A DNA stretch of 38,385 nt from contig SLNH01000009.1 in the NCBI GenBank assembly GCA_007133195.1, forward strand, positions 1 through 38,385, in the 5' to 3' direction. The position numbers and the translations under genes were made by a program. The stretch comes from Nannocystineae bacterium (GTDB taxonomy: Bacteria > Myxococcota_A > Polyangia > Haliangiales > Haliangiaceae). Below are positions 23,256 through 23,601 of this stretch, piece by piece. The notes beneath the pieces are model-generated. The model did no database searches and was not told the origin of the DNA. It was given only the letters and a program-made list of their open reading frames with translations. Position 1 is the first letter of the stretch. Each line of letters opens with the position of its first letter.

Positions 23256-23601
23256 CCAGATCCGCCTGCGCCCGCTTCTGGCGGAGTACCCGGCCCCCGG
23301 CGCGCGACATGGCCAACTCCTCGACTCCCCATTCGGCGAACGCCTCGCGGATTTCCTCGCTGGGTGGTGGAGCTAGTGTGCGATCCGCGGACGTTGATCC
23401 GCGATAGGAATTGTCGGGTATGGCGGTGCGCGAGTTGGCCGAAGGGCTTACTCGGCTCGTGTACCCATATGACATATATGTCATATGGGTACACGTCTCG
23501 AAAATAAGCCCACGAGCGTTCGGCATCTGCGTCCATCGAATCACGCTCAGTCGCGAGTCTGCCGGCATTGCCAGATCGATCGGAATGTGATCTGACGGGG
23601 T
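23256..23601. other. Islet intergenic region carrying the palindrome
   Basis: About 346 bp without a gene I can support. The only clear structure is the 38-bp palindrome at 23458-23495. A minus-strand frame ending near 23236 has a protein-like last stretch (SEEIREAFAEWGVEEL) and could be the tail of a decayed gene, but it has no convincing start. Confidence 0.45.
23458..23495. repeat. Perfect 38-bp palindrome without spacer
   Basis: The left arm CGTGTACCCATATGACATA (23458-23476) is followed directly by its exact reverse complement (23477-23495). There is no mismatch and no loop; symmetry breaks at the next base on each side. The core is AT-rich, in contrast to its surroundings, and holds two CATATG hexamers and two GTAC tetramers. 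It may be an operator, a recombination or resolution site, or a replication-related site; the sequence alone does not decide. Confidence 0.9.

What the first reader, a model, noticed from the sequence alone, without database searches (positions are those of the whole stretch)
23458..23495. Perfect 38-bp palindrome with no spacer
The two 19-bp arms are exact reverse complements and meet at the centre. Long spacer-less perfect palindromes are unstable in bacteria and rarely kept without function. It lies between the AlbA_2 gene and the transposase scar and is AT-rich inside GC-rich DNA. Possible roles are a dimer-of-dimers operator, a telomere-resolvase or resolution-type site, or a replication or transfer site.
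Basis: seen in the sequence. Interest (0 to 1): 0.75.

Follow-up and report, generated by a model that had tools for sequence, protein, structure and literature searches.

The report
Scattered myxobacterial palindromic repeat family
The perfect palindrome is one of about fourteen copies of an apparently undescribed short DNA repeat scattered between genes of this myxobacterium and one relative; its two 13-letter arms hardly change while everything around them drifts, as expected if a protein recognises them.

Summary
The 38-bp perfect palindrome at 23458-23495 is real and far beyond chance, but it is not unique. It belongs to a dispersed intergenic repeat family with the core GTACCCATATGAC-N6-GTCATATGGGTAC. 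The window's genome holds about 14 copies. One MAG from another genus of the same family holds 12, with K/M at the outermost base. Only decayed relics were found in 28 other members of the family. An exact core scan of 84,980 species gave that MAG plus two terminator-like hairpins. The arms are 92-95% identical between copies; the 6-bp centre and the flanks are 37-77% identical. Spacing is always 6 bp, and perfect half-sites almost never occur alone. No compensatory changes occur in the inner 12 pairs. This points to sequence-specific recognition, not RNA pairing. Neighbours are unrelated, mostly housekeeping genes in every orientation, and three sites in the relative lie in DNA missing from congeners, so copies spread by insertion. 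The 'spacer-less' feature is incidental: the centre here happens to read ATATAT, and the sister copy has ATTTAT. AlbA_2 association, telomere and assembly-artefact readings are not supported. Best reading: a non-autonomous mobile palindromic element whose arms bind an unidentified dimeric protein, most likely a recombinase or transposase. REP/RAYT membership was tested and not met.

The parts
23458..23495 (.). perfect 38-bp palindrome (the finding)
23461..23473 (+). left conserved 13-bp arm GTACCCATATGAC
   Evidence: nearly invariant across copies
23474..23479 (.). variable 6-bp centre (ATATAT here; ATTTAT in the sister copy at the end of contig C40)
23480..23492 (-). right conserved 13-bp arm (GTCATATGGGTAC on + strand)
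23444..23511 (.). extended, imperfect palindrome GGGCTTA...TAAGCCC around the core; decayed but recognisable in other copies
   Evidence: ssDNA fold -27.7 kcal/mol, z = -8.7
23373..23460 (+). left flank of the repeat, shared with the copy at the end of contig C40 (88-91% identity)

Best explanation
The palindrome is the core of a dispersed, non-coding, intergenic repeat (core 32 bp, flank homology to about +-35 bp in most copies and +-75-105 bp in close ones). SHOWN: 13-bp inverted arms of fixed sequence, exactly 6 bp apart, with freely varying centre and flanks; about 14 copies here and 12 in one MAG of a sister genus; unrelated neighbours; lineage-specific positions at the sites that could be compared. 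INFERRED: a dimeric or tetrameric protein binds the arms as double-stranded DNA. The likeliest protein is a site-specific recombinase or transposase acting in trans, which copied or moved the element into intergenic spaces; arms stay intact in copies that can still be recognised, while the rest drifts. UNKNOWN: the protein. The 13-6-13 geometry resembles tyrosine-recombinase core sites (recalled from memory: XerCD/dif has a 6-bp central region, Cre and Flp have 13-bp arms), but no such enzyme was linked to the sites.
For: Family: 12 palindromic copies each in G000 and G010 with up to 3 mismatches, none with the reversed control pattern; further copies, including the C40 end. All exact TACCCATATGAC half-sites are paired at 6 bp except one upstream of recA (C327). 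Arms 92-95% identical between copies against 37-68% for the centre and 44-77% for adjacent flanks. Copies with flanks 39-53% diverged have 0 of 24 arm changes (P down to 1e-8). No compensatory change in the 12 inner pairs, so sequence and not pairing is conserved. All copies are intergenic by a simple gene call, beside unrelated genes in divergent, tandem and convergent settings. Three G010 sites lie in 435 bp, about 1 kb and 2.4 kb of DNA missing from congeners. Decayed relics exist (L108 truncated at the arm, L124, a G019 copy), as expected of mobile DNA and not of an essential site.
Against: No autonomous partner, terminal inverted repeats at the outer ends, target-site duplication or precise empty site of the element itself was found; the missing DNA at the three compared sites is longer than the repeat. 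Arms survive in copies with very diverged flanks, which could equally mean a host function. Copies were mostly found by the arms, so decayed ones are under-counted (flank searches found only a few).
Confidence: 0.55

Rival explanations
1. The arms are the binding site of a host DNA-binding protein (global regulator or chromosome-organising protein, as matS or parS sites are), spread over about a dozen loci; the surrounding repeat is only the vehicle that carried the sites.
For: Arms unchanged where flanks have diverged by 40-50%; fixed 6-bp spacing in every intact copy; a low, similar copy number in both genomes; G-to-T shift of the outermost base with its partner in most copies of the other genus, as if recogniser and site changed together.
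Against: No shared function or promoter position among neighbours; three positions tested lie in DNA missing from congeners; decayed copies tolerated; absent from most of the family.
Confidence: 0.25
2. A REP/REPIN-like element moved as a single-stranded hairpin by a Y1 (RAYT or TIRYT) transposase.
For: Intergenic, palindromic, hairpin-forming; both genomes carry Y1_Tnp genes (8 and 7 matches); RAYT relatives flanked by other inverted repeats are known (PMC3733652).
Against: No copy of the palindrome beside the 11 Y1 loci examined; relatives with up to 34 Y1 matches have no palindrome; no conserved GTAG or CGTC tag; copy number about 13 and not hundreds; arms conserved at the centre, whereas REPINs conserve the outer ends (PMC3116915).
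Confidence: 0.12
3. A structured RNA element or terminator hairpin in transcripts.
For: Strong predicted stem.
Against: No compensatory changes in the inner stem although the flanks diverge; several copies lie between divergent genes; no run of T after the stem; no Rfam family.
Confidence: 0.05
4. A one-off site: AlbA_2 operator, telomere-resolvase target, or transfer or replication site, or an assembly fold-back.
For: Position beside the AlbA_2 gene and perfect symmetry.
Against: About 14 copies with different flanks in the genome and 12 in a separate MAG; no AlbA_2 at the other copies scanned; centre not palindromic in most copies.
Confidence: 0.03

Closest known systems
Neisserial dRS3 repeats, ATTCCC(N8)GGGAAT (PMC3898611)
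   Same: Short intergenic repeat with fixed inverted arms, fixed spacing and variable centre, embedded in mosaic intergenic repeats; used as the target of a phage integrase.
   Different: 6-bp arms and 8-bp centre, about 700 copies; no integrase target use shown here; no sequence relation.
REP / REPIN elements with RAYT transposases (PMC3116915, PMC3733652)
   Same: Extragenic palindromic, hairpin-forming, lineage-specific repeats that occur as inverted pairs.
   Different: No GTAG/CGTC tag, no transposase gene flanked by copies, low copy number, conservation at the centre and not at the ends.
Bacterial MITEs (ERIC, Correia, Nezha type, named from memory; review PMC10969869 seen as an abstract only)
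   Same: 100-300 bp non-coding dispersed element, intergenic.
   Different: No conserved outer terminal repeats, target duplications or parent IS found.
Tyrosine-recombinase core sites (dif, loxP, FRT; from memory)
   Same: Two 11-13 bp inverted arms around a 6-8 bp centre that is free to vary between sites.
   Different: No recombinase linked, no demonstrated recombination between copies.

Membership tests
REP/REPIN | extragenic palindromic repeat able to form a hairpin | tested here: met
REP/REPIN | GTAG or CGTC tetranucleotide at one end | tested here: not met
   no conserved tag at either end in 23 aligned copies; definition from PMC3733652
REP/REPIN | RAYT (Y1) gene flanked by the repeats | tested here: not met
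   palindrome absent from 11 Y1 loci in G000/G010; no correlation across relatives
REP/REPIN | high copy number | tested here: not met
   about 14 and 12 copies per genome
MITE | terminal inverted repeats and target-site duplication shared with a parent IS | tested here: inconclusive
   flank homology fades at +-75-105 bp without clear ends; an IS630-like fragment adjoins the window copy
MITE | insertion polymorphism between relatives | tested here: inconclusive
   three G010 sites lie in DNA missing from congeners, but the missing DNA is larger than the element
Site-specific (tyrosine) recombinase site | inverted arms with fixed 6-8 bp centre | tested here: met
Site-specific (tyrosine) recombinase site | cognate recombinase and recombination between copies | not tested
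   no recombinase among the neighbouring proteins scanned; no whole-genome recombinase search was left in the budget
AlbA_2 (Schlafen-like) operator | site recurs with AlbA_2 genes | tested here: not met
   AlbA_2 found only in the window among the neighbours scanned
Regulon operator | sites upstream of functionally related genes | tested here: not met
   mixed orientations and unrelated genes
Structured RNA | compensatory base changes in the stem | tested here: not met
   none in the 12 inner pairs; only the outermost pair changes on both sides

The most novel reading that the evidence does not exclude
Two genera of one myxobacterial family carry a previously undescribed palindromic site system: about a dozen dispersed 13-6-13 sites recognised by a dedicated recombinase or chromosome-organising protein that changed specificity together with its sites (outermost base G in one genus, mostly T in the other).
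Probability: 0.25. Interest if true: 0.65.

Novelty: new variant of a known kind. Interest (0 to 1): 0.45.

Why it matters
It defines an exact 32-bp probe for fishing out the cognate protein, and a small, clean repeat family in which arms, centre and flanks evolve at visibly different rates. That makes the question of what keeps low-copy palindromic repeats in bacterial genomes testable. It also warns that a 'perfect spacer-less palindrome' can be a chance centre in a known kind of repeat.

Tried and rejected
Phage and plasmid records, and IMG/VR core patterns: no related copy; looser cores in IMG/VR gave an unrelated tandem repeat and chance hits. Pedobacter and Vibrio hits are terminator-like hairpins. 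RAYT link: tested and rejected. Rfam: nothing meaningful. tRNA association: tRNAs or tmRNA lie on only three of the 25 loci scanned. Gene-family link: a POMP-type surface protein gene lies near copies in two loci, with no recombinase. Covariance model over 30 family genomes: only one extra relic. Unbiased palindrome scan of about 0.4 Mb each from G019, G004 and G010 contigs: no further copies of this family, apart from the G019 relic. Paper searches for the arm found only unrelated hits, probably primer sequences.

Full report
Observation. The palindrome CGTGTACCCATATGACATATATGTCATATGGGTACACG at 23458-23495 is exactly as described. It is the longest spacer-less palindrome in the window (19-bp arms, next best 8), with about 2e-6 expected from composition.

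It is a family. The window is contig C73 of a 5.64-Mb, 496-contig assembly. Searching the genome with one arm gave matches on many contigs and none with the reversed control (two chance control matches with a shorter, looser pattern). With the full core GTACCCATATGAC-N6-GTCATATGGGTAC (up to 3 mismatches), 12 copies occur in this genome and 12 in G010, none in 93 other relatives. The G010 contigs match a deposited MAG, Myxococcales bacterium TH-Jun18-119. A half-site census added the copy at the end of contig C40 and one lone half-site upstream of recA (C327), and showed that apart from C327 every exact half-site is paired at 6 bp. An exact scan of 84,980 species with the core gave only that MAG plus one Pedobacter and one Vibrio hairpin that look like terminators. 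IMG/VR had none.

Anatomy. Across 23 aligned copies the 13-bp arms are 92-95% identical (up to 99% for one arm within G010), the 6-bp centre 37-68%, adjacent flanks 44-77%. Outside the core lies a decayed extended palindrome with GGGG-type ends; close copies share +-75 to 105 bp. The window copy and the C40-end copy form one subfamily (left flank 88-91% identical); the C40 copy has centre ATTTAT where the window has ATATAT. A palindromic centre is expected by chance in about 2% of copies, so the 'no spacer' feature is incidental.

Constraint. Measured against each genome's own consensus, copies with flanks 39-53% diverged still have 0 arm changes in 24 positions (P down to 1e-8). The caveat is that copies were mostly found through their arms. 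Searches with flanks alone recovered few decayed copies: one truncated at the arm boundary (L108) and one with a degraded core (L124). A relic occurs in G019. In the arms no compensatory change occurs in the inner 12 pairs, so it is the sequence that is kept, not pairing. That favours protein recognition of DNA over an RNA stem.

Context. All copies fall between genes by a simple codon-usage gene call. Neighbours include glutamine synthetase, phosphoglycerate mutase, LolA, recA, FloA, mfd, rimP and an ABC-F gene, an RNA methyltransferase, EF-Tu and aquaporin genes, in divergent, tandem and convergent arrangements. Congeners of G010 lack 435 bp, about 1 kb and 2.4 kb of DNA at three of the sites. 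The sites are therefore lineage-specific and arrived with inserted DNA, although no precise element boundary could be drawn.

Mechanism. Most likely a non-autonomous mobile palindromic element whose arms are bound by a dimeric or tetrameric protein in trans, probably a site-specific recombinase or transposase. Shown: the family, its geometry, the constraint, and lineage-specific location. Inferred: protein binding and mobility. Unknown: the protein. The main rival is a host regulator or nucleoid protein site. REP/RAYT membership fails on tag, copy number and transposase link. The closest known analogue in architecture is the neisserial dRS3 repeat, ATTCCC(N8)GGGAAT, a phage-integrase target (PMC3898611).

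The AlbA_2, telomere, transfer and artefact ideas are not supported; the general idea of a dimer-of-dimers or resolution-type protein site remains open and is close to the best explanation.

Noticed in passing
window:23586-23850: Frameshifted N-terminal fragment of an IS630-like transposase (weak HTH matches); part of it recurs at 93% at the end of contig C27 (4193-4313).
   Followed up: partly
window:20973-23255: Lower-GC islet with an AlbA_2 gene directly after tRNA-Pro and tRNA-Arg genes; looks horizontally acquired.
   Followed up: no
L071:2219-4208: Two copies in the same orientation with the same centre (ATCCGC) flank a POMP-type surface protein gene, a possible excisable unit if the sites recombine.
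   Followed up: partly
L072:7709-7815: Local 54-bp duplication of half of the repeat beside an intact copy.
   Followed up: no
L074:4705-4736: One intact arm with a wholly degenerate partner, about 160 bp upstream of recA.
   Followed up: no
L270:280 and L277:5734 (genome G019): A different long palindrome family with 27-30 bp arms, AAGTTGTCAAAGTTGACACCGTCCCC..., in a sister genome.
   Followed up: no
genomes G005, G006, G007: Large expansions of Y1 transposase genes (34, 31 and 17 matches) in relatives that lack the palindrome.
   Followed up: no
G000:C40:40108-40137 and G000:C100:1-38: Contigs end or begin at copies of the palindrome, as if the assembler stopped there.
   Followed up: partly
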